A stretch of 64,000 bases of DNA. It comes from Rhizophagus irregularis. Taxonomy: Eukaryota > Glomeromycota > Glomeromycetes > Glomerales > Glomeraceae. The DNA lies in assembly GCF_026210795.1 (NCBI RefSeq), contig NC_089429.1, positions 4,402,001 to 4,466,000 of the forward strand. Reading direction: 5' to 3'. The translations under genes were made by a program, and so were the position numbers. Below are positions 14,301 to 64,000 of this stretch, one piece after another. How positions within the stretch are numbered: the stretch's first letter is position 1; each line of letters opens with the position of its first letter. The notes beneath the pieces are model-generated. The model was not told the DNA's origin and made no database searches. It worked only from the letters and a program-made list of their open reading frames with translations.

Positions 14301-15776
14301 ATGTTGAGTGGATATTCATTAGGACGAGATTTAAAATTATTAATAAATAACCCAAAGTATAGTGATGTAGAAATTTTATGTGGAGATGAAATCATACTAT
14401 ATGGTTGTAAAGCAATTTTAGCTGCAAGGTCTAAAGTATTTGATAAATTACTCTATAAAGGGGCGAAAGAAAATTATGAAAATCAAATTTTTCTCCCAAC
14501 GATCAATTATTCTGGAATGGAGATTATATTAGAATATATTTATACGGGATCAATTGAAGAAGAATCTTTAACAAAAGATAATATAATTGAATCATTTAAT
14601 GCCGCAGATTATTTTCAATTACCAGACCTTCAAGATCTTATTATTAAAACTCTTAAAAATATTTTAGAAAAGAATTGTGAAGAAAATAATTATACACCAG
14701 AATTATTATCTAAAGCTGTGGAAACAATGCCGTTATCAGAAGAAAATACTCTTTTAGATTTATTGGTTGAAAAAGTAGCAATTATTCCATTAAATATTAT
14801 TGAATTTGGTCGATTATCTATTAAAGCACTTGAGTATCTTTTATCTTGTGAAGATTATGAAAAAGAAACGTTCTTCGTAACTCCTGAATATGAAGTGTTT
14901 CGATACAGTGCTGTTTTAGCAGCAAAACAAGTTTCTAATAGCGCATATAAAACTCTTATGAAACGGTTACCAACCCTAGAACAAATAGAACAAATAGAGA
15001 ACTTAGTCCAAGTAGAAAATAAATTGTTTACCTATCACCAAAAAGTTGCTGAAGAATTGAAGCCTTTAATTAAATTTATAGATTTCGGGAGATTCAAAGG
15101 TCAAGTATTAGATGATATTATTGAGCCACTAAAAATTATTCCAACTGAAATAATTTTAAATGCTAATCAAAATAATACAAAACTAATTCAATTCACTTTG
15201 AATGATATACAAGAAATGCCAATGCAATTTTGTAAATTTAATGAACTCGATCATGTTTGGGATGAGTCGACATGTGGATCAAAACTAATTATTGAAGACA
15301 ATGGAAAAGTTGTAAGCGCTTCAGATGATTGTAATTTTAATCAAAGCGTCAGAAGTAAAATAGCATTAGGGAATAAAGGTATTTTCGAATGGGATGTCGT
15401 TATCGAGAAAACTTGTGCACAGGCTTGGATTGGAGTGTGTGCATCTGAAAACCTTAATTATGAAGAAAACTTGGCAATATTTCAACCTACTGGATGGGCA
15501 ATATCTTCCAATGGTTATTATTATAAAAGTTGGTCAAACTATTGTACTTCATTTGAAAATGGTACAAGAATTTCCGTTCGTTTAGATATGAATAAAGGAA
15601 CTTGTACTTTTACAGTTAATGGTAAAAGGTATCCGGAAATTACAGAATGGAAAAATTTACCATCAAAACTTTATCCAATGGTATCATTACGTCACCCTGG
15701 TCGTTTTAGAATTGAGTTCACTCGTAATAAACAGAATGAAAAAGGATTTTGGGAAAGTTTAAAATATATTTTATAA
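14301..15776 (+). CDS. BTB-BACK-SPRY protein, copy 1
   Basis: Single exon, 491 residues. The BTB/POZ domain spans about residues 10-118 (SDVEILCGDE, ILAARSKVFDKLLY, LEYIYTGSI). A BACK-like helical part spans about 135-285 (FGRLSIKALEYLLS, TPEYEVFRYSAVLAAKQVS, PLIKFIDF). A SPRY domain spans about 318-472 (GIFEWDVVIEK, AWIGVC, TRISVRLDMNKGTCTFTVNG, LPSKLYPMVSLRHPGRFRIE). From family knowledge the BTB binds CUL3 or self-associates, and SPRY binds a partner, so a substrate receptor of a CUL3 ligase is likely; the target is unknown. The C-terminal extension ending GFWESLKYIL is shared in form with copies 2 and 3. The start is the only ATG before the conserved GYSL motif. Confidence 0.9.
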   Translation: MLSGYSLGRDLKLLINNPKYSDVEILCGDEIILYGCKAILAARSKVFDKLLYKGAKENYENQIFLPTINYSGMEIILEYIYTGSIEEESLTKDNIIESFNAADYFQLPDLQDLIIKTLKNILEKNCEENNYTPELLSKAVETMPLSEENTLLDLLVEKVAIIPLNIIEFGRLSIKALEYLLSCEDYEKETFFVTPEYEVFRYSAVLAAKQVSNSAYKTLMKRLPTLEQIEQIENLVQVENKLFTYHQKVAEELKPLIKFIDFGRFKGQVLDDIIEPLKIIPTEIILNANQNNTKLIQFTLNDIQEMPMQFCKFNELDHVWDESTCGSKLIIEDNGKVVSASDDCNFNQSVRSKIALGNKGIFEWDVVIEKTCAQAWIGVCASENLNYEENLAIFQPTGWAISSNGYYYKSWSNYCTSFENGTRISVRLDMNKGTCTFTVNGKRYPEITEWKNLPSKLYPMVSLRHPGRFRIEFTRNKQNEKGFWESLKYIL

Positions 15777-16570
15777 TGAATATAACAGGAATGACACTCT
15801 TATAAATTCAATTTCGCGAAATTTTTGACGATAATTTTTTCTCAGTTTAATTTTAACAATAAATAAAAAATTTTTAATTTGTAAAGTTTCAAAATATGAA
15901 AACAATGTATTAATTGGCTGAATATTTATAAATAAAAATATAAGTTGTACTATAATATAAATATTTATTTGAATTATTCAATCAGAATTAAAAATTTTAA
16001 TTAAACTTACAAATTTCTTTTTTAAATTTTTTAATTGAACTAAATGTAACGTTTGACACAGTTCGAAAATTATTTATTGTTTATTTTAATTTTCTAAAAC
16101 GATTTTACGTTATTATGCTAATTATTATTTTCATATCAAAATGATTGAAATTTATAATGGAGAGAGGAAAATGTTTCTTGGATAATTTTTTGAAACAAAT
16201 CATACATTTAAGTTTGAAGCGTCTGCATTATAGGCACACGACAGAATTAAACGTACAGCGATAGTTTAAAATCATCAGCAACATGCAGGCGTAGAAAAAA
16301 AGGTTTATGTTGTGTAAATATTGCAAATAATTTATTTATATATATATATATAACAGATATAATTATACTACAAATTCATCTTTAAATTAATTATATATCA
16401 AATATAATTAACAGAAAGAATAGTAAATATAATCGCCAAAAATTTTCGGCATTCTTATAATACATCCTGCACGTTAAACGTAAAAATAAAAATTCATCGG
16501 AATTTAAAATTTCAACGATGTCGCACAAGTCGCACAAATCTTACAATCTAAATTATTAAAAAAAAAAAAA
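15777..16570. other. Convergent spacer between copies 1 and 2
   Basis: Tail-to-tail spacer with AATAAA signals near 15860 and 15930. A TA dinucleotide run lies at about 16338-16352. Nothing else was seen. Confidence 0.4.
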
Positions 16571-18058
16571 TTATTTTAACTTCTCTCTTAAATTTTTCCA
16601 AAATCTTCTTTCCTTCCTATTGTTAGGGATGGTTTTTACATCTTGATAAGGCTCAATTCTAAAACGACCAGGATGACGCAATGATACTACTGGATAAAGT
16701 TTTGATGGTAAATTATCCCATGCTGATATTTCCGGATATTTTTTACCATTGATTGTAAAAGAACAAGATCTTTTGTTCATATCTAAATGAACAGTAATTC
16801 TTGCACCATCACCAAATTTAGGACAATAATTTTTTACCCAATTTCCAGAGTTATAACAATAACCACTTGAACCTATAACCCATCCAGTAGGTTGATATCC
16901 CGCCCATGTATCAAAATTGAAATTTTCAGATGCACATACTCCAACCCAAGACCATAAACTATCTTTCTCAATAATTACATCCCATTCAAAAATACCTTTA
17001 TTTTCTAACGCTATTTTAGCTCTAATGCTTTGATGTGAAACACATTCATTTCTTTGTGCATAATATACGACTTTTCCATCATCCTCAACAATAAGTTTTG
17101 ATCCACATGCTGTCTCATCCCAAACAATTTCATTAAGCTTACATATTGACATTGTTGATATTCCTCGAATATCATTTAAATTTGAATTAGTAAATTTTGT
17201 ATTATTTCGATAAATATTTAAAATTATTTCACTTGGAATAATTTTTAATGGTTCAATTATATCAACTAATATTTGACCTTTGATACGCCTAAAATCAATG
17301 AATTTAGCCAAAGGTTCTAATTCTTTAGCAATTTTTTGATGATCGGGAATATTTATTTGGCCTTCATTCTCTAATCGTTTTATTTGTTTTAAAGGTGGTA
17401 GCGTTTTCATAAGTATTTTGAATGCATTATTAGAAACTTGTTTTGCTGCCAGCATAGCGCTATATCGAAAAACTTCATATTCTGGAGTTGCAAAGAAACT
17501 TTCTTTTTCATGCGTATAAGTATAAGATAAAAGATATTCAAGTGCTGTAATGGATAATCGACCAAATTCAATAGTATTTAATGAAATAGTCGCTACTTCT
17601 TTAATCAATAAATTTAAAAGAATATTTGTCTCCGATAATGGCGTTGTATCTGCAGCTTTAGATAATAATTCCGGTAAATAATTTTCTGCGAAACTAGTAT
17701 TTTTAATAGTTTTTATAATAAAATTCTGAAGGTCTAGTAATTGAATATAATCTGCTGCATAATACACTTCAATTATATTATCTTTAGTTAAAGATTCTTC
17801 TTTAATTGATCCTCTATAAATATATTCCAATATAATTTCCATTCCAATAGAATTAATTGTCGGAAAAGTAATTTGTTTTTCATAACTTTCTTTCATTCCA
17901 TTATAAAGTAATTTATCAAATACTTCGGACCTCGCTGCCAAAATTGCTCTACAGCCATATAATTTCTTTTTATCCTCACATAAAATTTCTATATCACTAT
18001 ACTTTGGATTATTTATTAATAATCTCAAATCTTGTTCTAACGAATATCCTCTCGTCAT
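16571..18058 (-). CDS. BTB-BACK-SPRY protein, copy 2
   Basis: Single exon of 495 residues on the minus strand, one of only two inverted members (the other is partial at the right edge). The start MTRGYSLEQDLRLLINN is the commonest form in the cluster. BTB, BACK-like and SPRY parts follow in the same order and spacing as in copy 1. The two variable SPRY segments read YYAQRNECVSHQ and NSGNWVKNYCPKFG; the second is almost the same as in copy 3, its divergent neighbour. The tail is the longest in the family and basic (NRKERRFWKNLREKLK). Copies 1-3 share the FW-containing tail and look like a subgroup. Confidence 0.9.
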   Translation of the reverse strand: MTRGYSLEQDLRLLINNPKYSDIEILCEDKKKLYGCRAILAARSEVFDKLLYNGMKESYEKQITFPTINSIGMEIILEYIYRGSIKEESLTKDNIIEVYYAADYIQLLDLQNFIIKTIKNTSFAENYLPELLSKAADTTPLSETNILLNLLIKEVATISLNTIEFGRLSITALEYLLSYTYTHEKESFFATPEYEVFRYSAMLAAKQVSNNAFKILMKTLPPLKQIKRLENEGQINIPDHQKIAKELEPLAKFIDFRRIKGQILVDIIEPLKIIPSEIILNIYRNNTKFTNSNLNDIRGISTMSICKLNEIVWDETACGSKLIVEDDGKVVYYAQRNECVSHQSIRAKIALENKGIFEWDVIIEKDSLWSWVGVCASENFNFDTWAGYQPTGWVIGSSGYCYNSGNWVKNYCPKFGDGARITVHLDMNKRSCSFTINGKKYPEISAWDNLPSKLYPVVSLRHPGRFRIEPYQDVKTIPNNRKERRFWKNLREKLK

Positions 18059-18133
18059 TTTTATTTTTTAAGGGGAAAAAAATTTTTTTTACTCTTACGT
18101 TATGTTTAATGTGGATATTTATATAAATAAATA

Positions 18134-18158
18134 ATTTTACAAATTTAGAATTGTAGTG
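18134..18158 (-). promoter_or_regulatory. Core promoter motif of copy 2
   Basis: On the minus strand GCACTACAATTCTAAATTTG followed by TAAAAT matches the TAGTACAAATCT / AATTTGTAAAAC block of copy 3 with few changes. It lies about 76-100 nt before the ATG at 18058. Confidence 0.45.
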
Positions 18159-19386: not shown

Positions 19387-20844
19387 ATGAGAGGATATTC
19401 ATTAGAACAAGACTTAAGATTGTTAATAAATAATCCAAGATATAGTGATATAGAAATTTTGTGTGGTGATGAAACGAAACTATATGGTTGTAGAGCAATT
19501 TTGGCAGCAAGGTCCGAAGTATTTGACAAATTACTTTATAATGGAATGAAAGAAAGTTATGAAAAACAAATTACTTTTCCGACAATTAATTCTTCTGGAA
19601 TGGAGATTATATTGGAATATGCTTATACAGGATCAATTAGAGAAGAATCTTTAATTAAAGATAATATAATTGAAGCTTTTTATGCTGCAGACTATTTTCA
19701 GTTACCGGAACTTCAAGATTTTATTATGATGATTCTTAGAAATATATTGAAAAAAAATTACGCAGAAAATTATTCACCAGAATTATTATCCAAAGCAGTA
19801 GATTCAACGCCATTATCAGAGGAAAATATTCTTTTAAATTTATTGGTTGAAGCGGTAGCAACTATTCCATTAAATACTATTAAATTTGGTCGGTTATCTA
19901 TTACGGCGCTCGAGTATCTTTTATCTTGTACACATGAAAAAGAAAGTTCTTTCGCAACTCCTGAATATGAAGTGTTTCGATATAGTGCTATTTTAGCAGC
20001 AAAACAAGTTTCTAATAGCGTATTTAAAACTCTTATGAAAAGGCTACCAACCTTGGAACAAATAGAACAAATGGAGAACCCGATTGTTCAAGTAAATATT
20101 ACCGATCAACAAACAATTCAAACAATTGCTAAAGAATTGGAACCTTTGGTTAAATTCATTGATTTCAGACGAATCAAAGGGCAACTACTAGTTGATATCA
20201 TTGAACCACTAAAAATTGTTCCAAGTGAAATAATTTTAAATATTTATCGTAATAATACAAAATTTACCAATTCAAATTTAAATTATATTCGAGGAATACC
20301 ACTACCAATCGATTCTGATTATATTTGGGATGAATCAGCATGTGGATCAAATCTTGTTATTGAGGATAATGGAAGAGTTGTACGTAATGATTTTAATACA
20401 TGTCAAAGCGTTAGAGCTAAATTAGCATTAGAAGATAAAGGTATTTTTGAGTGGGATGTCGTCATTGAGCGAGTATGTGAATATGCTTGGGTTGGAGTAT
20501 GTGCATCAGAAGATTTTGATTATGAAATATTTGCAGGAGTTCAATCTACTGGATGGGTGATAGGTTCAAGGGGTTACTGTCATAATTCTGGAAATTGGGT
20601 AAAAAATTATTGCCCTAAATTTGGAGATGATGCAAGAATTACCGTTCATTTGAATATGAATAAAAGAACTTGCGCTTTTACAGTAAATGGTGTCAAATAT
20701 CCAGAAATAGCGGAATGGAATAATTTACCATCAAAACTTCATCCAGTAGTATCGTTACGTTATCCTGGTCGTTTCCGAATTGAGCCCGCTCATAACAAGA
20801 ATGAGAAAGGTTTTTGGAAAAGTTTAATAAATAGGTGGAAATAA
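19387..20844 (+). CDS. BTB-BACK-SPRY protein, copy 3
   Basis: Single exon, 485 residues, start MRGYSLEQDLRLLINN directly after an A-run. BTB at about 8-117, BACK-like to about 285, SPRY at about 313-465. The first variable SPRY segment is short (RNDFNTC before QSVRAK), the second reads NSGNWVKNYCPKFG as in copy 2. The C-terminal NKNEKGFWKSLINRWK matches the extension of copy 1. Role as for copy 1: candidate CUL3 adaptor with a SPRY recognition module. Confidence 0.9.
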   Translation: MRGYSLEQDLRLLINNPRYSDIEILCGDETKLYGCRAILAARSEVFDKLLYNGMKESYEKQITFPTINSSGMEIILEYAYTGSIREESLIKDNIIEAFYAADYFQLPELQDFIMMILRNILKKNYAENYSPELLSKAVDSTPLSEENILLNLLVEAVATIPLNTIKFGRLSITALEYLLSCTHEKESSFATPEYEVFRYSAILAAKQVSNSVFKTLMKRLPTLEQIEQMENPIVQVNITDQQTIQTIAKELEPLVKFIDFRRIKGQLLVDIIEPLKIVPSEIILNIYRNNTKFTNSNLNYIRGIPLPIDSDYIWDESACGSNLVIEDNGRVVRNDFNTCQSVRAKLALEDKGIFEWDVVIERVCEYAWVGVCASEDFDYEIFAGVQSTGWVIGSRGYCHNSGNWVKNYCPKFGDDARITVHLNMNKRTCAFTVNGVKYPEIAEWNNLPSKLHPVVSLRYPGRFRIEPAHNKNEKGFWKSLINRWK

Positions 20845-21158: not shown

Positions 21159-21277
21159 TCATTAAAGCAAGATTGCTAATAAATAACTTATGGGAATGAG
21201 GTGAAATAATATTGATCTAAGTTAATTTTAGCAGCAAGATCCGAATTATTTATAATGAATGAAGTAAGTTACGAAGA
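21159..21277 (+). pseudogene. Relic of a BTB-SPRY 5' end
   Basis: TCATTAAAGCAAGATTGCTA then ATAAATAAC matches the SLEQDLRLLINN region. It is followed after an internal loss by TTAGCAGCAAGATCCGAA (LAARSE) and TATAATGAATGAAGTAAGTT (LYNGMKESYE region). The middle of the BTB domain and everything after it are missing. Confidence 0.65.
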
Positions 21278-21529
21278 AAAAAAAAATTTTTTTTCGCTAA
21301 ATATGACGAGGGCGAAGCTTTCATTGTCGGGTTTATGATCAAAGTTATAGGTGATGTCAAAATCTTGAATTGCGACAGCAATTACGGTGTTAGCGTTACG
21401 GCATATGTCTAAATTATTTAAAATGCGTAACCGTATTACAATTTCGATGGCACTTATAATCAAAGTGCATTTTTCGCCAAATTTTGACATTGTCAACTTT
21501 TGTTGAATCATAGTATGTTTATTTTATTT

Positions 21530-23141: not shown

Positions 23142-23154
23142 AGCTTGCCCTTTG

Positions 23155-23740: not shown

Positions 23741-23858
23741 AATTTCATTTTTTTTTTAAAAAAAAATATTCTGGAGGAGATATCGATATTTATAATTATG
23801 AGATAATAATAATAAATTGTACTGATATAGAAATTTTACGTGAAGATATAAAAGAAAT
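23741..23858 (+). pseudogene. Relic of a BTB-SPRY 5' end
   Basis: A T-run and A-run like the family's 5' leader is followed by degraded sequence ending GATATAGAAATTTTACGTGA then AGATATAAAAGAAAT, which matches SDIEILCEDEKKL of intact copies. The relic stops exactly where an inverted-repeat element starts. Confidence 0.6.
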
Positions 23859-23859
23859 A

Positions 23860-31757: not shown

Positions 31758-32895
31758 ATAAGTTTCAGCTCAGCCTGATTTAGTACACAAGTATATACAA
31801 AGTATACAAAGCAAGGTTTATTTAATATCAAAGCAACAACATCAAATGAAACAATTTCCAAGTTTTAATATTTCTTTATAGCCATTGCTAGTGTAACTAA
31901 ACAGGGAGGCTGTACTTATATGTTTTTGTAATTAGAAATGAGTATCATTAAAAATAAGCCATTAACCAGGAAATGACATCACTATAAAGTCCGGAGTATT
32001 GTTTATGATGCATTTATATGATCAAAATGTCCCTCAAATTGTTAAAAATTGTTAAATCCGAAGGACCATATTTCTATGCAAAATGATATAATAACTATGT
32101 TTTTGATAAAGAATTTTTTAATGACGAGAGGATATGTGATATAGAAGTATAAGGGAATATTCTAAATTTATTGATCGAAATAGCTACAAATATTCATTAA
32201 GTACCGTTGAATTTTGAAAAAAGAACCCAGAAGTAACAATTCAATTTAAATATGATTGGTGGGATTCTGGCTGGGACAGCCAGAATTATAGAAATTTTTT
32301 TTTTTGTTTTTTTTTCGATTTTTCGAATTTTCAGAAACTTATTCGGAGCGTTATTAGATACGAATAATAAACTTGAGCTTTGCAATCTGTCCGTATGAAT
32401 AATTTACCAACGTATCTTAATCTGTAGTATCATTCTATTGTAAAAAAAAGCGCATTTATTTTACATAACAAATTCAATAATTATTCTTCAGAATCCACCG
32501 GTTTAAATATATTTCTTACCGATCGATTTTTTTGGGTAGCGTTAGTGATAGTGTCGGCCGAAATTTTGTCGCATTTTTGACTATCAGACTCTGAATATGC
32601 CGATCTCCACTGTAACACATCATTGTTAAATTTCTTTGTTCGATTTATTATTTATATTATACGAAAGATGTATTCGGAAATTATGAACTAAATATTTATA
32701 CTTTACTTATATGTAATTTTCCGGAAGTAATTTGAGTAACGGAAAAAAAATAGTGTTATATGATTCGTACTTTAATCAATTTGTGCAATGGTCACAAAAT
32801 TAATAGTTAAAGTTACACGACGTAAACTAAACAATAAAATTCCCAATTTTTTACTTCTTTGTCTTTTTGAAAACAAGAAAAACATTTTCTCTAAA
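31758..32895. other. Spacer before copy 5, with relic
   Basis: Holds the relic at 32121-32216 and a 13-bp imperfect palindrome GGCTGGGACAGCC at about 32269-32281. A weak GTAC box (TTCGTACTTTAATC, about 32764) may belong to the promoter of copy 5. No other gene. Confidence 0.35.
32121..32216 (+). pseudogene. BTB-SPRY relic with large internal loss
   Basis: ATGACGAGAGGATAT is the family start (MTRGY). It runs straight into GTGATATAGAAGT (SDIEV region), then GGGAATATTCTAAATTTATT (NILLNLL) and ACCGTTGAATTTTG (TIEFG). Most of BTB, the second half of BACK and SPRY are absent in under 100 bp. Confidence 0.65.
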
Positions 32896-34284
32896 ATGAT
32901 GAAAGGATATTCGTTAGAGTATGATTTAGGATTATTAATAAACAATCCAAAGTATAGTGATATAGAAATTTTATGTGAAGATGAAAAGAAACTATATGGT
33001 TGTAGAGCAATCTTGGCTGCGAGATCCGAAGTATTTGATAGATTATTTTATAACGGAATGAAAGAAAGTTACGATAATCAAATTTCTTTTCCAGAAATTA
33101 ATTCTTCTGGAATGAAGATTATTTTAGATTATATTTATACAGGATCAATAAAAGAAGAATCTTTAAATAAAGACAATATAATCGAAGCATATTATGCTGC
33201 AGACTTTTTTCAATTATTAGACCTTCAAGATTTTATAATGAAATTTATTGAAAACACTAATTATACGGAAAATTATTCACCAGAATTATTATCTAGAGCT
33301 GCGGAGAAAATACCATTTTCAGATGACAATATTCTTCTAAATTTATTGATTGAAACAGTAGCAAATACTCCATTAAATACAATAGAATTAGGTCGATTAT
33401 CTATTACGGCACTTCAATATCTTCTATCTTGTACATATGAAAAAGAAAAACCCTTCGCAACCCCAGAATATGAAGTTTTTCGATATAGCGCTAACCTTGC
33501 AGCAAAACAAGTTTCTAATATTACATATAAAAGTCTTGTGAAAAGGCTGCCAACCTTGGAAGAATTAGAGAATTCGAAACAAATAGAAATTAAACGTATT
33601 TACAATAACAAAAAGATTGCTAAAGAATTGGAACCTTTAATTAAATTTATTGATTTCAGGCGAATTAAAGGACAAATATTGGCAGATATCATTGACCCGT
33701 TAGATATTATTTCAACTAAAGTAATTTTAGATGTTTATCGACAAAAGGCAAGATTAAATAATACAGATTCAAATGAATTTCGAGGAACACTTAACAATTA
33801 TGTTTGGGATAAGTCAGCATGTGGGTCAAAACTTATAGTTGAGGATAACGGAAAAGTTGTATATGCACAAAACGGATGGTATAACCTTCAAAATGTTAGA
33901 TCTAAAATGACATTTGAAAATAAAGGTATTTTCGAATGGGATGTTATTATTGAGAAAATATGTGAGAATATTTGGGTTGGAATTTGTGCATCAGAAAATT
34001 TTAATTATGAAAACTTTGCAGGATTTCAACCTACTGGATGGGTATTAGGTTCAAATGGTAACTGTCTTAATTCCAACAATTGGTCAAATTATTGTCCTTC
34101 ATTTGGAGATGGTACGAAAATTACCGTTCATTTAGATATGAATAAAAGAACTTGCGCTTTTTCAGTCAATGGTAAAAGGTATTCAGAAATATCAGAATGG
34201 AATAATTTACCATCAAAACTTCATCCAGTTGTATCATTACGGTATCCTGGACGTTTTCGAATTAAGCCTCATCAAAAAGTTTGA
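32896..34284 (+). CDS. BTB-BACK-SPRY protein, copy 5
   Basis: Single exon, 462 residues from the ATG at 32896 (MMKGYSLEYDLGLLINN); the second ATG, three bases on, is equally possible. The frame is open upstream to 32788 but those residues are not conserved. SPRY variable segments are YAQNGWYNLQ and NSNNWSNYCPSFG. It keeps FAGFQPTGWVLGSNG and the DGTKITVHLDMNKRTCAFSVNG strand pair. It ends RIKPHQKV. It stands alone, with 4.5 kb without an intact gene upstream and 2.4 kb downstream. Confidence 0.9.
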   Translation: MMKGYSLEYDLGLLINNPKYSDIEILCEDEKKLYGCRAILAARSEVFDRLFYNGMKESYDNQISFPEINSSGMKIILDYIYTGSIKEESLNKDNIIEAYYAADFFQLLDLQDFIMKFIENTNYTENYSPELLSRAAEKIPFSDDNILLNLLIETVANTPLNTIELGRLSITALQYLLSCTYEKEKPFATPEYEVFRYSANLAAKQVSNITYKSLVKRLPTLEELENSKQIEIKRIYNNKKIAKELEPLIKFIDFRRIKGQILADIIDPLDIISTKVILDVYRQKARLNNTDSNEFRGTLNNYVWDKSACGSKLIVEDNGKVVYAQNGWYNLQNVRSKMTFENKGIFEWDVIIEKICENIWVGICASENFNYENFAGFQPTGWVLGSNGNCLNSNNWSNYCPSFGDGTKITVHLDMNKRTCAFSVNGKRYSEISEWNNLPSKLHPVVSLRYPGRFRIKPHQKV

Positions 34285-38397: not shown

Positions 38398-38580
38398 GTT
38401 GTAGCGGTAGCGGCTATTCCATTAAAATACCATGAATATTTATTTTAGTCGATTGTCTTTTTCAGGTATTTGGATTATGAAGTTCCATGTAGTGCTATTG
38501 TTATTGAACCATTAGAAATTATTCAGCTAAAATGTTTATCGACACATCCAATAATTAAGATTTAAGTGATACTACTCGAG
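38398..38580 (+). pseudogene. BTB-SPRY relic, middle part
   Basis: GTAGCGGTAGCGGCTATTCC then ATTAAAATACC matches VAVATIPLNTI. TATGAAGTTCCATGTAGTGC matches YEVFRYSAI. ATTGAACCATTAGAAATTAT matches IEPLEII, and GATACTACTCGAGAAG the N-D-IRG region. Several internal pieces are missing and frames shift between blocks. Confidence 0.65.
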
Positions 38581-38934
38581 AAGTATTTAATTTATTTAAT
38601 TATTTTATTAAAAGTAAGAAATATTAGATAGAGATAATATTAACACACGGTAGAACAAACTACACTTAGCTACGCCCGCTGCTACGGTACGGTATAAGTG
38701 ATCTATTCAGTTAAAATCGAACACTCATATTAACAATACGAGTCCACCTTTCGTTAAAAAAAGAAAACTACCTATAGAGAAACGTGGTCGCTACGATAGT
38801 AAGAAAGAGCAACAAAAGATGTATAATAAAAGAGGGATCAAAGAAAAATCGATGAGGCCTCTAAATATACATATAATGTACAATGTCGTACGTAAATACT
38901 GTCGAGTACGAAATGGTTCCACTATTAAAAAACT

Positions 38935-39130
38935 ATGATTTTGTCAATTGCATCAAAAGATTCTATGGACAGAAATGCATTGAATTATTGTTCCTCGTTT
39001 GGAGAAGGTACGGAAATTACCGTTTATTTAGTTATGAATAAAGAACTTTTGATTTTACGGTCAAATAGTATTGTTATGTTATCGCGGCAGCATTCGAATT
39101 CAATCTCATCAAAAATATTAGTATGTTTAT
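38935..39130 (+). pseudogene. BTB-SPRY relic, SPRY end
   Basis: The frame at 38935-39132 reads NALNYCSSFGEGTEITVYLV then MNKEL, matching NYCPSFGDGTRITVHLDMNKR. It is followed by out-of-frame remains of the C-terminus (GTTATCGCGGCAGCATTCGA then ATTCAATCTCATCA, compare FRIQPHQ). The piece belongs with 38398-38580 as one dead copy. Confidence 0.65.
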
Positions 39131-45873: not shown

Positions 45874-47295
45874 ATGACGAGAGGATATTCATTAGAACAA
45901 GATTTAAGATTATTAATAAATAATCAAAAATATAGTGATGTAGAAATTATATGTGAGGATGAAAAGAAATTACATGGTTGTAGAGCAATTTTAGCGGCAA
46001 GATCCGAAGTATTTGATAGATTACTTTATAATGGAATGAAGGAAAGTTATGAAAAAGAAATTTCTTTTCCAAAGATTAATTCTATTGGAATGGAGATGAT
46101 ATTAGAATATATTTATACAGGATCAATTAAAGAAGAATCTTTAACAAAAGATAATATGATTGAAATTTTTTACGCTGCAGATTATTTTCAATTAACAGAA
46201 CTTCAAAATTTTATAATGAAAACTTTCAAGAATACATTAAAAAAAAATTACACAGAGAACTATTCACCGGAATTATTATCTAAATTTGCGGAAAAAATTC
46301 CATTAACAGAAAATAATATTCTTCTAAATTTATTAGTTGAAGCGGTATCAATTATTCCATTAAATAGAATTGAATTTGGTCGATTATCTATTTCAGGTCT
46401 TCAATATCTTTTAACTTGTACACATGAAGAAGGAACTCCTTTTGCAACCCCAGAATATGAAGTTTTTCGATATAGCGCTATTCTTACAGCAAAACAAGTT
46501 TCTGATAATGCATATAAAGCCCTTATGAAACAGTTACCAACCTTGGAACAAATAAAACAAATAGAAAACCCAATAAAGGTAAAAAATGAAAATAAAATTA
46601 TTACCGATCACCAAAAGGTAGTTAAAGAATTGGAGCCTTTAATTAAATTTATTGATTTCAGAAGAATTGAAGGACAAATTTTGACCGATGTCATCGAACC
46701 ATTAGAAATTATCTCTGAAAAAATAATTTTGGATGTTTATCGACAAAAAGCAAAATTAAATGAATCTGATTTAAATAATATTCGAGGAATACCCATACCA
46801 GTTTGTGTATGGGATGATACAGCATGTGGATCAAAACTTATATTTGAGAATAATGGAAAAATTGTACGCTTACAAAGTCAAACAAAATCATCACGAAATG
46901 TTAAAGCTAAAATGATACTGGAAGATAAAGGTATTTTTGAATGGGATTTTATTATAGAAAAAGCTTGTGGAGATGCTTGGGTAGGAGTATGTTCGCCAGA
47001 AAATTTAAATTATGAATTCTTTGCAGGAAAGCAACCAGTTGGATGGGTATTAGGTACTAAGGGACGTTGTTATAATTCTGGAAATTATATAAACAATTAT
47101 TGTCCATCATTCGGAGATGGTGCAAGAATTACTGTTCATCTGGATATGAATAAAAGAACTTGTGCTTTTACAGTTAACGGTACTAAGTATAAGGAGGTAA
47201 CAGAATGGAATAATTTACCATCAAAGCTTTATCCAGTAGCATCATTATGCTATCCTGGTCGTTTTAGAATTGAGCCTCATCAAAAATATATTTAG
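45874..47295 (+). CDS. BTB-BACK-SPRY protein, copy 9
   Basis: Single exon, 473 residues, start MTRGYSLEQDLRLLINNQKY. The N-terminal 110 residues are almost those of copy 8. SPRY differs: segment 1 RLQSQTKSSR before NVKAK, then CSPENLNYEFFAGKQPVGWV and NSGNYINNYCPSFG. VWDDTACGSKLI keeps the cysteine. It ends CYPGRFRIEPHQKYI. The sharp change in similarity between the two halves suggests recombination between copies. Confidence 0.9.
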   Translation: MTRGYSLEQDLRLLINNQKYSDVEIICEDEKKLHGCRAILAARSEVFDRLLYNGMKESYEKEISFPKINSIGMEMILEYIYTGSIKEESLTKDNMIEIFYAADYFQLTELQNFIMKTFKNTLKKNYTENYSPELLSKFAEKIPLTENNILLNLLVEAVSIIPLNRIEFGRLSISGLQYLLTCTHEEGTPFATPEYEVFRYSAILTAKQVSDNAYKALMKQLPTLEQIKQIENPIKVKNENKIITDHQKVVKELEPLIKFIDFRRIEGQILTDVIEPLEIISEKIILDVYRQKAKLNESDLNNIRGIPIPVCVWDDTACGSKLIFENNGKIVRLQSQTKSSRNVKAKMILEDKGIFEWDFIIEKACGDAWVGVCSPENLNYEFFAGKQPVGWVLGTKGRCYNSGNYINNYCPSFGDGARITVHLDMNKRTCAFTVNGTKYKEVTEWNNLPSKLYPVASLCYPGRFRIEPHQKYI

Positions 47296-49317: not shown

Positions 49318-50745
49318 ATGATGAGAGGAGATTCATTAGAACAAGATTTGAGATTATTAATAAATAATCCAAAATATAGTGATGTAGAAATTTTATGTGA
49401 AGATAAAAAGAAATTATATGGTTGTAGAGCAATTTTAGCTGCAAGGTCCGAAGTATTTGATAGGTTACTTTATAATGGAATGAAGGAAAGTTACGAAAAT
49501 CAAATTTCATTTCCAAAGATCAATTCAATTGGAATGGAAATCATATTAGAATATATATATACGGGATCAATTAAAGAAGAGTCTTTAACAAAAGATAATG
49601 TGATAGAGTCTTATTACGCTGCAGATTTTTTACAATTAACTGAACTTCAGAATTTTATTATGAACACTTTTAAAAAAACATTAAAAAATTATTGTACAGA
49701 AAATTATTCACCAGAGTTACTATCTAAATTTGCGGAAAAAATTCCATTAACAGAAGATAATATTTTTTTAAATTTATTAGTTGAAGCGGTAGCAGTTATA
49801 CCATTAAATAATATTGAATTTGGTCGATTATCTATTAAAGGTATTCAGTATCTTTTATCTTGTACATATGAAAAGGAAAAGCTTTTTGCGACCGTTGAAT
49901 ATGAGGTCTTTCGATATAGTGCTATTCTTGCAGCAAAACAAGTTTCTAATGATGCTCATAAAACTCTTATGGAACGGTTACCAACCCTTGAACAATTAGA
50001 ACAAGTAATGAATTCGGCTCAAGTAGATAATGATGATAAATCAATTATCAATCACCAAGAAATTGCTAAAGAATTGGAACCTTTAGTGAAATATATTGAT
50101 TTCATGAGAATTGATGGACAAATATTGGTTGAGATTATTGAACCATTAGGAATTATTCCAGCAAAAATAATTTTGTTTGTTTATCGAAAAAAAGTAAGAT
50201 TAACTAAATCTGAATTAAATAATACTCGAGGAATACCCATTCCAATTTATTCAAAATATGTTTGGGATGAGTTAGAACGTGGATCAAATGTTCTTATTAA
50301 AGAAAATGGAAAAATTGTATGTTTAAAAAGTGCAACTGATTCATGGCGAAATGTTAGAGCCAAAATGATACTAGAAGGTAAAGGAATTTTTGAATGGGAT
50401 TTTATTATGGAAAAAGCTTGTGTAAATGCTTGGGTGGGAGTATGTGCACCAGAAAATTTAAGTTACGAATTCTTTGCAGGAAAACAACTAACTGGATGGG
50501 TATTAGGTACCAATGGATATTGTTATAACTCTAATAAAGGATCAAGTTATTGCCCACCATTTGGAGATGGTTCAAGAATTACTGTTCATTTGGATATGAA
50601 TAAAAGAACTTGTTCTTTTATCGTTAACGGTACAAAATATCCGGAAGTGTCAGCATGGAATAATTTACCATCAAAGCTTTATCCGGTAGCATCTTTTAAT
50701 TATCCTGCTCGACTTCGAATTCAGCCCCATCAGAAAAGTGTTTAA
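49318..50745 (+). CDS. BTB-BACK-SPRY protein, copy 10
   Basis: Single exon, 475 residues, start MMRGDSLEQDLRLLINN (second ATG at 49321 also possible). The BACK part has EKEKLFATVEYEVF, shared only with copy 7. VWDELERGSNVLI replaces the usual DESACGS, losing the cysteine. SPRY has CLKSATDSWR then NVRAK, CAPENLSYEFFAGKQLTGWV and NSNKGSSYCPPFG, and ends SFNYPARLRIQPHQKSV. Copies 10, 11 and 12 form one subgroup by SPRY. Confidence 0.9.
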   Translation: MMRGDSLEQDLRLLINNPKYSDVEILCEDKKKLYGCRAILAARSEVFDRLLYNGMKESYENQISFPKINSIGMEIILEYIYTGSIKEESLTKDNVIESYYAADFLQLTELQNFIMNTFKKTLKNYCTENYSPELLSKFAEKIPLTEDNIFLNLLVEAVAVIPLNNIEFGRLSIKGIQYLLSCTYEKEKLFATVEYEVFRYSAILAAKQVSNDAHKTLMERLPTLEQLEQVMNSAQVDNDDKSIINHQEIAKELEPLVKYIDFMRIDGQILVEIIEPLGIIPAKIILFVYRKKVRLTKSELNNTRGIPIPIYSKYVWDELERGSNVLIKENGKIVCLKSATDSWRNVRAKMILEGKGIFEWDFIMEKACVNAWVGVCAPENLSYEFFAGKQLTGWVLGTNGYCYNSNKGSSYCPPFGDGSRITVHLDMNKRTCSFIVNGTKYPEVSAWNNLPSKLYPVASFNYPARLRIQPHQKSV

Positions 50746-55890: not shown

Positions 55891-55920
55891 AAGTTTCATT
55901 TGAAAGTTGAAAAAAAAAAT

Positions 55921-56097
55921 TTATCGCCGTTTTCAAAATGATGTATTCAGTTAAATTGAATAAAAAAAAAGAAAACCGAAAACCGGACGAAAACCGGACG
56001 AAATATGGTCAAAAAACGGACGAAAACCGGGCGAATATTGGTATTCGAATATACAATCACAAATAAATTGCGTACACTATTTTGAAAACGGCGATAA
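55921..56097. mobile_element. MITE, TTATCGCCG family, 177 bp
   Basis: TTATCGCCGTTTTCAAAAT at 55921-55939 and ATTTTGAAAACGGCGATAA at 56079-56097 are perfect 19-bp inverted repeats. The inside has three to four ACCGGACGAAA-like direct repeats and no ORF. It lies between the promoter and the first codon of the pseudogene. Ends match the larger element at 31365-31757. Confidence 0.85.
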
Positions 56098-56149
56098 ATA
56101 AAAAACTTCACTTTTTATATAAATAAAGAATTTTTTTTTCTTCTAAGCA

Positions 56150-57373
56150 ATAACGAGAGGATATTCATTTAAGAGTTATTAATAAATAATCCAAAGTATA
56201 GATAGAGAATTTATGTGAAGGTGAAAAGAAATTACATGGCTGTACCGCTGTAGAACAATTTTAGCTGCAAGTTCCGAAGTGTTTGATAGATTCCTTTATA
56301 ATGAAATGAAGGAAAGTTATGAAATTCCTTTTCCAAATATTAAATTCCATTGGAATGGAGATCGCAATAGAATATATCTACAATGGATCAATTAAAGAAG
56401 AGTCTTTAACAAAAGATAATATAATTGAAGCTTCTTACGCTACCGACTATTTTCATTTATCAGGTCTTCAGAATTTTATTATCAAAACTTTCAAAAATAA
56501 GATAAAAAAAAAATCACAATGAAAATAATTCACCAGAATTATTATCTAAATTTGCAGAAAAAATTCCATTAACGAAAAATAATATTCTTTTAAATTTATT
56601 GGTTAAAGCAGCATTACATACCATTGAATTTGATCGTTTGTCTATTGCAAGTCTTCAATATCTTTATATTGTACTTATGAAAGAAAAAGCCTTTTGCAAC
56701 GAAGTTTTTCGATATAGTGCTACTCTTGCAGCAAAACATGATGCGTATAAAACTTTCATGGAACGATTACCAACCTTGGAAAAAATAGGACAGGTAAAAA
56801 ACTCAGTTTAAATAAAAATAAATCTATCACCCAAAAAGTTGCTAAAGAACTGATATCATTGAACTACTAGCGTTAGAAATTATTCCAGCAAAATAATTTT
56901 GAATTTTTATTGACAAAAAGCAAGATTAAATCGATTTAAATAATATTCGAGGGATACCCAACCAAATTGTGTTTTGGAGGATAATGGAAAAGTCGCATGT
57001 CTGCAAAGTAAAACTCAAAGATGGCATAACGTCAGAGCTAAAATGATACTAGAAAATAAAGGTATTTTTGAATGGGTGTTATTATAGAGAAATCTTATTT
57101 AGATGTTTGGATTGGAGTATATACATCAGAAGATTTAAATCATGAATTTTTGACGGGAAGGCAAACTATTAGATAGGTATTACCGTATTAGGTATTATCG
57201 GCGAGTGTTTTAATTCTAAAAATCTAATTAATTATTGTCCATCATTTCGTGAAGACGGTGCAAGAATTACTGTTCATTGGATATGAACAAAAGAACTTGT
57301 GCTTTCACAGTTAACGGTACTAAGTATTAGGCAGGAGGTATCATAATGGAATAATTTACCATCAAAGCTTTAG
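56150..57373 (+). pseudogene. BTB-BACK-SPRY pseudogene
   Basis: A nearly full-length copy matches the family from the ACGAGAGGATATTCATT start region to ATTTACCATCAAAGCTTTA. The start codon reads ATA instead of ATG. Many small deletions and insertions shift the frame: after GATATTCATT, in the SDIEIL region, between the BACK and SPRY parts, in EWDV and in GWVLG, and there are in-frame stops. Open fragments remain at 56319-56522 (BTB) and 56599-56811 (BACK). The last 60-70 bases of the SPRY code are lost. By eye it is nearest to copies 9-12. This is a host gene copy that died fairly recently, since long blocks stay above 85 percent identity. Confidence 0.85.
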
Positions 57374-60154: not shown

Positions 60155-63100
60155 GTTACAGAAAAAATTGTGTCATCATTTGGTTTTTGTCCATAATAAA
60201 AACGTTTTATATTTTATATTTATTATAAATTTATCACGAATGATTTATATTGTGAATATGATGCTGAACGGCTAAACTGGCAGAACAAATAATTGATAAA
60301 TGTAATTGCTTTAAACACTTTACAGGTAGGTAAAAAGATCTTTTAATAGTTTAGATGATTAACAAATTTCACAATAATCTTAAAAATCATCTTTTGAAGC
60401 TTTTATTATAATAATATTGATTCTAACAAATTTATATTTCTCTTTATACTACAAATCTTGAAAGATTTAATGTTTATGATAAAAACGAATAATTTTCAGG
60501 ATTAGAGGAGAAATGGAAATACAAGTTCATAGTAGATTTAGTTATATACAATGGTGAAGAATGTTTTTAACATTAACAACTGAAATATTGTTTAAAATTA
60601 GTTAAAGAATTTGATTTAATTAAAAATAATTATAGATATTTATAAAAATTTCAGGGGAGTTTCATAATAAAAGAATGAAGTTATTTTGCATAATCGATTT
60701 CAAATCGAGTCCTATAAAACTAATATAATTCTACAACTACTATAATTAATATTTAATTTATTGGTAGTTTAACCTGTTTGCTTCAATTTTACTATTTTAC
60801 TGGTTTATTGAGTAGGAATTTTAGACCTGAAGAAGTTAATGTTATGCAATTTGGAGGTTTGAACATTCGGATTTGATATTAAAATTATATAATGGTTATT
60901 ACAAGATTAGTTGTTTTAATAAAGTATTTATTTTAAAACAGCATTAAAATAGGATAAATAGTTATTAACCAATATAAAATAATTTTTTGTTTCTTCAATA
61001 AATCGTTAAAATAGTTGTGGCTAGTGTGGCTAGGTTATTCATTCTACAACCCTATTATGCATGATCAAACTTTTATGAATTAATCATCAAGATATTTTGG
61101 TAGGCTAATTGAGATACATTTCTTGTAACATGAGTAAACAAAAAGAGAAAATTGTTTAGGCTATTTTCCCTCATTTGAAAATGATGCAAAATTACTGTTC
61201 GTTTGAAAATGAATAAAAAAACTTTACGGTCAACTGTGCAATGTATCTGAAAAGTATTAGGGTAGAATTATTTGCCATCAAAGCTTTGCCTTGTAATATC
61301 ATTATGTTCATTTTTATATAAATTTAATTAAGAATTTGCTTGATATTGTTCTAAGAATAATATAAATCAAGGTTTAATTAGTAAGTCATAACGAAAACAT
61401 TATCATTATTTTCATATATAATATGGAAAGTTATAAAAGTTGAGGACTAAAAATTATTTGTTTTTTTTGTAACTATACATACATTACAATAGTACAATTT
61501 TCTATATTGAGTTCAATAATTGATGTTTTAACATGGGTCATTTTTTAATTTACAGATTTATAATTTTTTTCTATTCCTAACTTTTTTTTAAATTATCGGC
61601 GTTAATTTCGTAGTACAATCTGGATAAAAAATTATGAATCTGTCTATTCACAAGTTTACTTCTATATATGAGCGACAGAATTCAATTAGGAATTGAGTTA
61701 ACTCAGAAACGTTAAGAATGTGGACCAAAAAACCAGGACTTGAAGAAGTAGAGTTTGACGGACATTTATGATCATGTGATCATGATCTGGTCGTTCCAAA
61801 AAAACAGATCGTTCGTCAGACACGCCGCAACCCACTAATCACACCACCACACCAATGAATCCAACTCATATCACTTACTTTTGGAAGAATCTCTGATATC
61901 CAAGAAATGTTATATTAGCGTAATTATTTATTCTTTTTATTTTTATCAAAAGGAAATACAAAGTCATAACGATTTTATCATTCCAAATTTGCAAATATTT
62001 AGAAAATTTTTCTTTCAATTTCTTGATCAATCGTTGGTTACCGATTTTTGGATGAAGAGACAGTCTACTTTTACATGTGACTTATCTGTAACTTTTCTTA
62101 TTCAATGAAAGATTATTAGTATTTATTACATTATTGATATACCGTGCACATTTAAAGGAGATTTAGTATGTCTTAAACAATTACAACACATATTTATTAA
62201 TGCTTGCTCTTGGCCAGATATAGTTAACCTATAAACCGTTTCTCCTCCACATAGAGGTGGCGAAATTATTTTTAAAATAAACTTTCTCATCTTACCCATA
62301 TTATCATATTTATTATTTTGAACTATGGGACTAAGGACCAAGGATTAAACACAGGTTTCTCTACCCAATTTTAAATTTTATATTCATTCAAGTATGATTT
62401 GATGTGTGGAGAGTTGGCTGTACCTTACCTTTGTTTTACTTGACGAAATATAATAGAAGAGGAGAGAAAAAGATAAAAGTAAATCTTTTTTATTAATTCA
62501 TGAGTTATTTAAATATTGAAGTAACTATCGATACTCATTGATTATTAGTCAGCAGGTTGAAGATCAATGTGCTGACCCGTTTCTTTGCTATTATTTATTA
62601 TGTCCGATCATTATTAAAATTATAATAATTAATTGCAAAATGTTTGGCATAAAATAATTTCAGCTAAACTAGCTAAACTGATTTTTGATGCATAAACAAT
62701 CACACGTCCAAAAATAGTGCTAAATATTCATTGATTCATGCGAAGGAAATCACATGACATAATCCTGATACTTTTTTTCGGTTACTATACAAAAATGTTT
62801 AATGGTTTAAAGAATTTATTTCATAATCAGAGAAATTGTTATACATACAAGTTAAAATTTATTTGATGGGAAATCGAATTGTGGAAATTTCGTGTATTAT
62901 TACAAATTAATAAAAAATTACAGTCTGTTCAATGAAGCATACGAACTTCTGTTTATAAATTATTATCTATAGAACTAAGAGCGCTCTACCTAAAGCATGG
63001 CTTCTTATATAATATAGTATTAACAAAAAAAATATATATATATAAATTTGAAGTTAGGAATCAAGAAATTTAATTTATATTCAATAAATTTATTTCAAAA

Positions 63101-63180
63101 TAAATAAATAAATATAATTAGACATACAAAATATATATACATAAAAATTCATAAAATTTTTTACTAAAAATATCTTCTTT
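60155..63180. other. Spacer between copy 12 and copy 13
   Basis: Three kb without an intact gene. One SPRY relic is listed at 61161-61306. Open frames at 61881-62108 and 62126-62341 have no recognisable domain. Confidence 0.4.
61161..61306 (+). pseudogene. SPRY-end relic
   Basis: CTATTTTCCCTCATTTGAAA then ATGATGCAAAATTACTGTTC matches YCPSFGDGARITVH. GAAAATGAATAAAAAAACTT matches DMNKRT. TTTGCCATCAAAGCTTTGCC matches LPSKLYP. Frames are shifted between blocks and nothing upstream of SPRY remains. Confidence 0.6.
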
Positions 63181-64000
63181 TTAACGAGGCTGAATTCGAA
63201 TTCGGCCAGGATAACATAATGATGCAACCGGATAAAGCTTCGATGGTAAATTATTCCACGCTGATATTTCTGGATATTTTGTACCTTTAACTGTAAAAGA
63301 ACAAGTTCTTTTATTCATATCTATATGTACTGTAATTTTTGCTCCATCTCCGAATGATTGACAATAATTATTGTATACTCTATTTCCTGAATAGCACCTA
63401 CCATTGGAACCTAATACCCATCCAGTAGGTTGGTCACCTGCCCAGGTTTCATAATTGAAATTTTCTGATGCACATACTCCAACCCAAGAAGCACTACAAT
63501 CTTTCTCAATAATAACATCCCATTCAAAAATACCTTCATTTTCAAGTATCATTTTAGCTCTGATATTTTGCCGTACACGAAGATCGTTTGTGGCGCGTAC
63601 AACTTTTCCATTATCCTCAATAATAAGTTTTGACCCACGTGCTGATTCATCCCAAACATAATTGGATTCAGCAAAATCAATTGGTTTTTGTGGTTTTCCT
63701 CGAATTCCATTTGAATCAGAGTCATTTGATAATGCTTTACGTCGATAAACACTTACAATTATTTCAGATGGGATAATTTCCAATGGTTCAATGATTTCAA
63801 TTAATATTCGAGCCTTAATTTGATTGAATTCAATAAATTTAATCAAAGGCTCCAATCTTTTAGCAACTTTTTGACGATCAGTAAATTCATTTTCTAACTT
63901 GATTGAATTTGTGTTTTCCAATTGTTCTAATGTTGGTAATTGTCTCATAAGAATTTTATGTGCATCATTAGAAACTTGTTTTGCTACAAGAATAGCGCTA
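63181..64000 (-). CDS. BTB-BACK-SPRY protein, copy 13 (5' part outside window)
   Basis: The minus-strand frame is open from the window edge to TAA at 63181-63183, about 273 residues, starting inside the BACK part (SAILVAKQVSNDAHKILMRQ). It covers the linker (KRLEPLIKFIEF, IEPLEIIPSEI) and the whole SPRY domain (GIFEWDVIIEKDCSASWVGV, TVHIDMNKRTCSFTVKG, LPSKLYPVASLCYPGRIRIQ). Segments are RATNDLRVRQ and SGNRVYNNYCQSFG. VWDESARGSKLI has R where most copies have C. An ATG at 63948 is internal and is not the start. It is inverted relative to copies 3-12. Confidence 0.88.
   Translation of the reverse strand, partial: SAILVAKQVSNDAHKILMRQLPTLEQLENTNSIKLENEFTDRQKVAKRLEPLIKFIEFNQIKARILIEIIEPLEIIPSEIIVSVYRRKALSNDSDSNGIRGKPQKPIDFAESNYVWDESARGSKLIIEDNGKVVRATNDLRVRQNIRAKMILENEGIFEWDVIIEKDCSASWVGVCASENFNYETWAGDQPTGWVLGSNGRCYSGNRVYNNYCQSFGDGAKITVHIDMNKRTCSFTVKGTKYPEISAWNNLPSKLYPVASLCYPGRIRIQPR

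What the first reader, a model, noticed from the sequence alone, without database searches (positions are those of the whole stretch)
14301..64000. A 50-kb birth-and-death cluster of intronless BTB-BACK-SPRY genes
Seen: twelve intact copies, one cut by the edge, one long pseudogene and at least six shorter relics of one family, with hardly any other gene between them. Known: BTB-BACK proteins with a C-terminal binding domain often serve CUL3 ubiquitin ligases, and SPRY domains bind proteins with fast-evolving loops. Inferred: the cluster may supply a varied set of recognition proteins, for example in self/non-self or host interaction. The BTB-BACK-SPRY order in such tandem numbers is unusual for fungi as far as I know.
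Basis: partly seen in the sequence, partly recalled or inferred. Interest (0 to 1): 0.75.

Follow-up and report, generated by a model that had tools for sequence, protein, structure and literature searches.

The report
Tandem cluster of fungal BTB-SPRY genes
A probably fungal DNA stretch carries a row of a dozen sister genes whose proteins look like interchangeable target-recognition parts of a protein-tagging machine, with the attachment end kept alike and the target-binding loops made different from copy to copy.

Summary
The array is real: twelve uninterrupted genes of 469-498 aa, a thirteenth cut by the window edge, one long pseudogene (56125-57372) and about six short relics, three of them secure. 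BTB is found in 12 of 12 complete copies and SPRY in 13 of 13, above Pfam's cut-off. The middle is predicted helical, but BACK is not confirmed (0 of 13).

Best explanation: a birth-and-death array of substrate receptors for a CUL3-type ubiquitin ligase. The BTB half is conserved (median dN/dS 0.29), keeps the CUL3-binding phi-x-E motif in 10 of 12 copies, and passed between g08 and g09 by a conversion-like event. Only the SPRY half has codons with dN/dS above 1 (M8a-M8 P=0.004; 0 of 47 null simulations reach it). About half of these align with loops B, C and D of the ligand face of SPSB/GUSTAVUS. Without the two indel-bearing loops the excess disappears, so the claim rests on them.

CUL3 binding, ligands and biological role (self/non-self or not) are untested. 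The host is inferred, not shown, to be an arbuscular mycorrhizal fungus. New variant of a known kind.

The parts
14301..15776 (+). g01, intact BTB-helical-SPRY gene, 491 aa; phi of the phi-x-E motif is Ala
   Evidence: ORF; Pfam; alignment
16571..18058 (-). g02, intact copy, 495 aa, the only complete copy on the - strand
19387..20844 (+). g03, intact copy, 485 aa
26907..28367 (+). g04, intact copy, 486 aa; homology starts at an internal Met (residue 23)
32788..34284 (+). g05, intact copy, 498 aa; homology starts at an internal Met (residue 37)
36703..38112 (+). g06, intact copy, 469 aa, among the most divergent; phi of the phi-x-E motif lost in a two-residue deletion
39685..41106 (+). g07, intact copy, 473 aa
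43728..45155 (+). g08, intact copy, 475 aa; BTB part shared with g09 by a conversion-like event
45874..47295 (+). g09, intact copy, 473 aa; BTB part 95-97% identical to g08, the rest 71-88%
49318..50745 (+). g10, intact copy, 475 aa
53098..54540 (+). g11, intact copy, 480 aa
58724..60154 (+). g12, intact copy, 476 aa; reference numbering for the sites
63181..64000 (-). g13, copy cut by the window edge; 272 aa of the C-terminal part, with SPRY
56125..57372 (+). long pseudogene of the family, many stops
   Evidence: nhmmer 1e-158 and 4e-95; one-frame translation
61146..61308 (+). relic of the SPRY part
   Evidence: nhmmer 1.4e-19
38398..39121 (+). relic in four colinear pieces (middle part, then SPRY)
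   Evidence: nhmmer 7.6e-13, 2.7e-6, 3.3e-6, 7.9e-4
11235..11521 (+). relic of the BTB/middle part, upstream of the stated range
   Evidence: nhmmer 8.3e-5 with a large composition bias
23782..23858 (+). probable short relic of the BTB start
   Evidence: blastn 2e-9, nhmmer 0.012
21183..21302 (+). possible short relic of the BTB part
   Evidence: blastn 3.4e-6, tblastn 0.026
32156..32214 (+). possible short relic
   Evidence: blastn 1e-6 only

Best explanation
A tandem birth-and-death array of substrate receptors for a CUL3-type ubiquitin ligase. In each protein the BTB domain, with the helical segment after it, would dimerise and dock on CUL3. The C-terminal SPRY domain would grip a short peptide or a protein surface with the loops on one face and present it for ubiquitylation. 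Duplication makes new copies, local exchange can keep BTB parts alike, and selection changes the SPRY loops, so the array yields one docking end with many specificities. Shown here: the array, the domains, the conserved BTB and its motif, one exchange (g08-g09), and fast loops in the SPRY. Inferred: CUL3 docking, ubiquitylation, and that the loop differences change the ligand.
For: BTB 12 of 12, SPRY 13 of 13. In the AlphaFold model the SPRY part (residues 321-470) has 10-residue pLDDT means of 71-93 and matches B30.2/SPRY structures, Foldseek E from 7e-13, TRIM67, TRIM9 and RanBP9/10 ranking above SPSB. By sequence the closest SPRY chains in the PDB are GUSTAVUS and SPSB1, receptors of SOCS-box ligases. 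The BTB profile matches SPOP and KBTBD2/4, though its top hit is a ZBTB17-BCL6 fusion. phi-x-E (M55-K56-E57, g12 numbering): Met-x-Glu in 10 of 12, the Glu in 12 of 12; motif from PMC3616122 (passages). Median dN/dS: BTB 0.29, middle 0.45, SPRY 0.50. A class above 1 only in SPRY: M1a-M2a P=0.0005, M8a-M8 P=0.004 on gap-free columns; BTB and middle P=1. 0 of 47 null simulations reach either statistic. Two other alignments give M8a-M8 P 0.004-0.011. Of 13 sites above 0.9, 7 lie in SPSB loops A-E (35 of 155 residues), P=0.010; above 0.5, 10 of 16, P=0.0003. Site 369 aligns with SPSB1 Thr111 and 337 with Arg77, both peptide contacts.
Against: BACK/3-box unconfirmed (a weak KLHL11-Cul3 match, E 0.2). 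phi is Ala in g01 and deleted in g06. Without residues 334-343 and 404-411 the class above 1 vanishes (P=1 in two versions); without g02 and g03 it weakens (P 0.03-0.11, two versions). The g07-g12 clade alone is weak (M8a-M8 P=0.045, M1a-M2a P=0.32), and the BTB topology gives M1a-M2a P=0.056. The codon code is my own and somewhat liberal (4 of 47 nulls above the 5% line). Loops A and E carry no selected site; 335, 407-409, 442 and 469 lie outside the face loops; the loop boundaries were drawn after the sites were known. No expression, CUL3 or ligand data.
Confidence: 0.6

Rival explanations
1. Genomic drift: the cluster grows and shrinks by unequal exchange, many copies matter little, and the SPRY loops differ because they are unconstrained (dN/dS about 1), not because difference is favoured.
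For: Pseudogene and relics. Outside loop B and 404-411 the fastest sites fit dN/dS=1. Drift has been argued for plant F-box families (PMC3030570, passages). BTB/POZ families are broadly inflated in R. irregularis (PMC8647823; PMC3886924; passages).
Against: All 12 complete copies keep open frames at pairwise dS 0.18-0.65, with median dN/dS of the three domains 0.29-0.50. M8a-M8, which allows a class at exactly 1, still rejects neutrality on the whole SPRY core.
Confidence: 0.25
2. BTB-SPRY scaffolds that do not use ubiquitin: BTB dimerises and SPRY assembles signalling or transcription complexes.
For: The best BTB sequence match is a fusion of the BTB parts of ZBTB17 and BCL6, E 2.7e-10 over both domains. 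BACK/3-box was not detected. SPRY domains also occur in proteins such as Ash2L and DDX1.
Against: Met-x-Glu kept in 10 of 12. Pfam listed no DNA-binding or kinase domain in the copies.
Confidence: 0.15
3. Effectors that act inside a partner plant, comparable in recognition logic to nematode SPRYSECs.
For: A nematode secreted SPRY protein (SPRYSEC-15) is among the 7 PDB sequences below E 1e-6 (4.7e-7). SPRYSEC SPRY domains also show positive selection in loops of surface A on a GUSTAVUS-based model (PMC5071358, passages).
Against: By inspection the aligned N-termini (M-x-RGYSLEQDL...) show no hydrophobic signal stretch; no signal-peptide program was run. No BTB is mentioned for SPRYSECs in the passages read.
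Confidence: 0.04

Closest known systems
MATH-BTB / SPOP-type CUL3 adaptors (expanded in grasses and, recalled, nematodes)
   Same: BTB plus a substrate domain; expansion with diversifying selection and pseudogenes reported for monocot MATH-BTB (cited in PMC3030570, passages). The nematode case (Thomas 2006) is recalled; the paper is not held.
   Different: Substrate domain is SPRY, at the C-terminus; about 180 residues of predicted helical segment lie between the two domains.
SPSB1-4 / GUSTAVUS (SPRY-SOCS box)
   Same: Closest SPRY relatives by sequence in the PDB; ligand face formed by loops A-E (PMC2923778, passages).
   Different: BTB instead of a SOCS box (none listed). Arg77, Thr111 and Trp217 of SPSB1 align with variable or different residues, so the (D/E)(I/L)NNN motif is not the expected ligand; Tyr129 aligns with a Tyr or Phe in 13 of 13.
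BTB-BACK-Kelch (KLHL/KBTBD)
   Same: BTB with phi-x-E, then a helical segment and a C-terminal recognition domain.
   Different: SPRY instead of Kelch; BACK not detected by profile.
TRIM (B30.2/SPRY) restriction factors
   Same: SPRY under positive selection (TRIM5alpha, cited in PMC5071358, passages); TRIM67 and TRIM9 are the top Foldseek matches of the SPRY model.
   Different: No RING, B-box or PRY listed by Pfam.
BTB-BACK-TLDc genes (one lies inside the cluster)
   Same: BTB protein family; 26.6% identity over 109 columns spanning the end of BTB and the start of the middle segment, E 0.002.
   Different: TLDc C-terminus and one predicted intron.
Naegleria gruberi BTB-SPRY protein with a LYR domain
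   Same: BTB and SPRY in one protein (table in PMC4381221, passage).
   Different: Carries a LYR domain; no array described in the passage read.

Membership tests
CUL3 (CRL3) BTB substrate adaptor | BTB/POZ domain | tested here: met
   PF00651 in 12 of 12 complete copies
CUL3 (CRL3) BTB substrate adaptor | phi-x-E motif in the alpha3-beta4 region | tested here: met
   Met-x-Glu in 10 of 12; Glu in 12 of 12; g01 has Ala at phi, g06 has phi deleted (motif)
CUL3 (CRL3) BTB substrate adaptor | 3-box / BACK helices | tested here: inconclusive
   Helical in models of low confidence; profile searches negative; weak Foldseek match to KLHL11-Cul3, E 0.2
CUL3 (CRL3) BTB substrate adaptor | Physical CUL3 binding and ubiquitylation of a substrate | not testable with these tools
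   Needs bench work
BACK domain (PF07707) | Match to the Pfam model | tested here: not met
   0 of 13 at E<=1 and 0 of 13 middle segments at E<=10; the same library scored the BTB-BACK-TLDc neighbour at E 0.00093, just under the cut-off
SPRY domain (PF00622) | Match above gathering score and SPRY beta-sandwich fold | tested here: met
   13 of 13; Foldseek of the g12 model to B30.2/SPRY structures
SPSB / GUSTAVUS | SOCS box after the SPRY | tested here: not met
   No SOCS box listed at E<=1 in Pfam scans of 13 copies
SPSB / GUSTAVUS | Arg77, Thr111, Tyr129, Trp217 pocket for (D/E)(I/L)NNN | tested here: not met
   Aligned positions variable or different except the Tyr
TRIM | RING, B-box, coiled coil | tested here: not met
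   No RING or B-box listed; coiled coil not tested
SPRYSEC effectors | N-terminal signal peptide | tested here: inconclusive
   Absent by inspection; no predictor run

The most novel reading that the evidence does not exclude
A fungal repertoire of recognition ligases: a clustered set of BTB-SPRY receptors in which the CUL3-docking half is kept uniform by gene conversion while ligand-face loops of the SPRY half are diversified by selection, serving recognition of non-self proteins (viruses, mobile elements, endosymbionts, or foreign nuclei after hyphal fusion).
Probability: 0.2. Interest if true: 0.85.

Novelty: new variant of a known kind. Interest (0 to 1): 0.5.

Why it matters
Expanded BTB families are a known feature of arbuscular mycorrhizal genomes, and roles in perception have been proposed for such high-copy genes (PMC8647823, passage). 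If this cluster belongs there, it gives that idea a testable form: copies share a ligase-docking end and differ in a ligand-binding face. It would also be a fungal counterpart to MATH-BTB, F-box and TRIM repertoires, and a starting point for asking whether such fungi have an intracellular recognition system.

Tried and rejected
Relatives elsewhere: three profile scans of viral contigs and one of genome contigs gave 40, 15, 25 and 44 pattern matches and no tblastn-confirmed relative. The window's genome is not held, so copy number, isolate comparison and the organism could not be checked; metagenome scans are capped at 0 and were not tried.

BACK: Pfam at E<=10 and a PDB profile search (only two hits, E 0.43 and 0.56, one named Ceg14 and one a Dot/Icm substrate) were negative. 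A dedicated BTB-middle model stayed poor (mean pLDDT 50.7); Foldseek gave no match at E<=0.001 and its best was KLHL11-Cul3 at E 0.2, probability 0.20.

Whole-protein model: mean pLDDT 58.6, and 27-39 by 10-residue block in residues 1-70, although Pfam is certain of BTB; so no statement on BTB structure rests on it.

Gene conversion: of 66 pairs, only g08-g09 is significant after global permutation (P=0.018, 500 permutations); g07-g11 is P=0.08. AU tests reject the other topologies on BTB only narrowly (P 0.029-0.046), reject the middle-segment tree on SPRY (P=0.009) but not the full tree (P=0.38), and do not reject the SPRY or full tree on the middle segment. So exchange of the BTB part is shown for one pair, not the whole array.

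Tandem origin: over the 12 complete copies sequence distance rises with physical distance (Mantel r 0.37, reached in 72 of 10,000 permutations), but flanking homology is short and patchy, so no large duplicated block is visible.

Rfam: no RNA family in the window at gathering scores.
Full report
OBSERVATION. The window is 64 kb at 26-29% G+C. Twelve complete ORFs of 469-498 aa and one cut by the edge form one family. Identity of the others to g12 is 59-86%, the partial g13 included. Eleven of the twelve complete copies lie on the + strand. BTB is found in 12 of 12 and SPRY in 13 of 13 (counting g13) above Pfam's gathering score. A profile search of the gene-masked window finds the long pseudogene 56125-57372 and three secure short relics (61146-61308, 38398-39121, 11235-11521); three more candidates rest mainly on blastn. 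The reversed window gave no nhmmer or tblastn hit and 13 merged blastn places, best E 4e-5, against 22 places in the real one. The relic at 11235 lies upstream of the stated range. Other genes inside: a BTB-BACK-TLDc gene with one predicted intron (the 94-bp choice gives 467 aa; a second splice choice was also open), and a 159-aa ORF with a hydrophobic start and no Pfam family.

WHERE IT COMES FROM. No genome is held. Low G+C content, several BTB genes and a BTB-BACK-TLDc neighbour suggest an arbuscular mycorrhizal fungus such as Rhizophagus; this is inference, partly from recall. Papers seen in passages: expanded families in these fungi, BTB/POZ and Kelch among them, sometimes form tandem arrays and strain-specific gene sets proposed to serve perception (PMC8647823); BTB-type domains make up about 25% of a set of annotated R. 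irregularis genes, the passage being cut before it defines the set (PMC3886924); BTB/POZ is abundant in arbuscular mycorrhizal fungi (PMC7550596). 'SPRY' does not occur in the main text of PMC8647823 or PMC6123716.

ARCHITECTURE. BTB occupies about residues 16-117, a segment predicted helical 121-300, a variable linker to about 315, and SPRY 316-470 (g12 numbering). In the model, 10-residue pLDDT means are 71-93 over residues 321-470, and Foldseek finds B30.2/SPRY structures from E 7e-13, with TRIM67, TRIM9 and RanBP9/10 first, SPSB3 14th and GUSTAVUS 17th. By sequence the nearest solved SPRY domains are GUSTAVUS and SPSB1; a nematode SPRYSEC and SPSB3 follow. BACK is not confirmed: 0 of 13 by Pfam even at E<=10, no PDB profile match below E 0.4, and a low-confidence model whose best Foldseek match, KLHL11-Cul3, has E 0.2. 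The only hint for it is a 26.6% match over 109 columns (E 0.002) to the BTB-BACK-TLDc neighbour that runs from BTB into the middle segment.

CUL3 MOTIF. PMC3616122 (passages) describes phi-x-E: in KLHL3 it is Met83-Ser84-Glu85, and E85A left Cul3 binding too weak to measure. In this family Met55-Lys56-Glu57 falls in the corresponding stretch (placement by eye; HMMER aligns the same stretch with KBTBD4). Met-x-Glu is present in 10 of 12 and Glu57 in 12 of 12; g01 has Ala at phi and g06 has phi deleted. The family's BTB profile matches SPOP and KBTBD2/4, but its top match is a ZBTB17-BCL6 fusion.

EVOLUTION OF THE PARTS. Pairwise dS is 0.18-0.65. Median pairwise dN/dS is 0.29 (BTB, 66 pairs), 0.45 (middle), 1.0 (20-residue linker) and 0.50 (SPRY; 78 pairs each). 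Copies g07-g12, which are adjacent, form a clade in the full tree (support 97). Distance in sequence grows with distance on the DNA (Mantel r 0.37, 72 of 10,000 permutations). In the BTB tree g08 pairs with g09 (96), but in the SPRY tree g08 pairs with g07 (100) and g09 with g10-g12 (98). g08 and g09 are 95-97% identical over residues 1-120, 88% over 121-180, and 71-82% beyond, and their shared run at residues 90-113 is significant (global P=0.018). So the BTB part moved between copies at least once.

SELECTION. I wrote site models M0, M1a, M2a, M7, M8a and M8. On 149 gap-free SPRY codons M1a-M2a gives P=0.0005, M8a-M8 P=0.004 and M7-M8 P=3e-11, with about 10% of sites at dN/dS near 2. BTB and middle give P=1 for the first two and P 0.08-0.31 for M7-M8. 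Three other topologies (the BTB one without g13) give M8a-M8 P 0.0036-0.027 and M1a-M2a P 0.0006-0.056. Leaving out g06 gives M8a-M8 0.007. The N and C halves give 0.001 and 0.004; g01-g06 alone 0.003; g07-g12 alone 0.045 (M1a-M2a 0.32). Of 47 null simulations under M8a (48 planned, stopped by time) none reached the observed values (largest 6.7 against 8.3, and 10.4 against 15.2), though 4 passed the nominal 5% line for M8a-M8. Two other alignments give M8a-M8 P 0.004-0.011. Against this, removing residues 334-343 and 404-411, which border indels and are also the fastest loops, leaves no class above 1 (P=1, in two versions). Dropping g02 and g03, the copies with indels in loop B, gives M8a-M8 P=0.03 (N half) and 0.07 (core without 404-411), M1a-M2a P=0.04 and 0.11. 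I conclude that the loops evolve at or above the neutral rate inside conserved proteins, with moderate support for above.

WHERE THE SITES LIE. PMC2923778 (passages) places the SPSB ligand site on five loops A-E opposite the SOCS box, with contacts including Arg77, Thr111, Tyr129 and Trp217 of SPSB1; mutants of SPSB2 loop residues 123-125 and 126-128 lose binding. By the HMMER alignment, read by eye with SPSB1 numbering checked against residues named in the paper, g12 residue 337 aligns with Arg77, 369 with Thr111, 383 with Tyr129, and 386 and 389 with SPSB2 residues 123 and 126. Loops were taken as the non-strand stretches of the model that hold those contacts; they were drawn after the sites were known. 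Using the posteriors, 7 of 13 sites above 0.9 (337, 341-343, 369, 385, 389) lie in the 35 face-loop residues of 155, P=0.010; above 0.5, 10 of 16, P=0.0003. Mean posterior dN/dS is 0.66 in face loops, 0.26 in other non-strand residues and 0.30 in strands. Loops A and E contribute none, and 335, 407-409, 442 and 469 lie outside. Tyr129's counterpart is Tyr or Phe in 13 of 13; the other contacts are not kept, so the SPSB ligand motif is not expected here.

MECHANISM. Shown: conserved BTB with a mostly intact CUL3 motif, variable SPRY loops that align with the ligand face of relatives, pseudogenes and relics, and one exchange. Inferred: CUL3 docking, ubiquitylation, and copy-specific ligands. The biological role is open; self/non-self is one option among several and has no direct evidence.

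NOVELTY. Full-text searches returned 0 papers for BTB with SPRY plus Rhizophagus or CUL3/fungi terms and for SPRY domain with arbuscular mycorrhizal. A looser search held 118 papers, of which I saw 20 titles and abstract starts, none on BTB-SPRY by title. Six phrase variants gave one paper, on a Naegleria protein. The library lacks most subscription papers. The design logic (uniform ligase hook, diversified receptor domain, clustered turnover) is known from MATH-BTB, F-box and TRIM families, so I call it a new variant of a known kind.

Noticed in passing
31365-31757: A near-palindromic stretch of about 390 bp (self-match 78.6% over 402 columns) that could fold into a long hairpin; possible element or hairpin-RNA source.
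   Followed up: partly
55919-56099: A 181-bp element with perfect 21-bp terminal inverted repeats (no other exact copy of the repeat in the window), just upstream of the long pseudogene; looks like a miniature inverted-repeat element.
   Followed up: partly
29033-29470: Tandem array with a unit of about 141 bp, roughly three copies.
   Followed up: no
24246-25743: BTB-BACK-TLDc gene with one predicted intron (24509-24602) sitting inside the array.
   Followed up: partly
42649-43128: 159-aa ORF with a hydrophobic N-terminus and no Pfam family; possible small secreted protein.
   Followed up: no
2387-4003: Kelch-repeat gene in pieces, apparently with introns and, by inspection, a C-terminal membrane segment.
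   Followed up: no
4346-5416: O-fucosyltransferase-like gene on the - strand (PF10250, E 1.3e-10).
   Followed up: no
12794-13160: Repeats of about 31 bp (70% matches) with small ORFs open on both strands.
   Followed up: no
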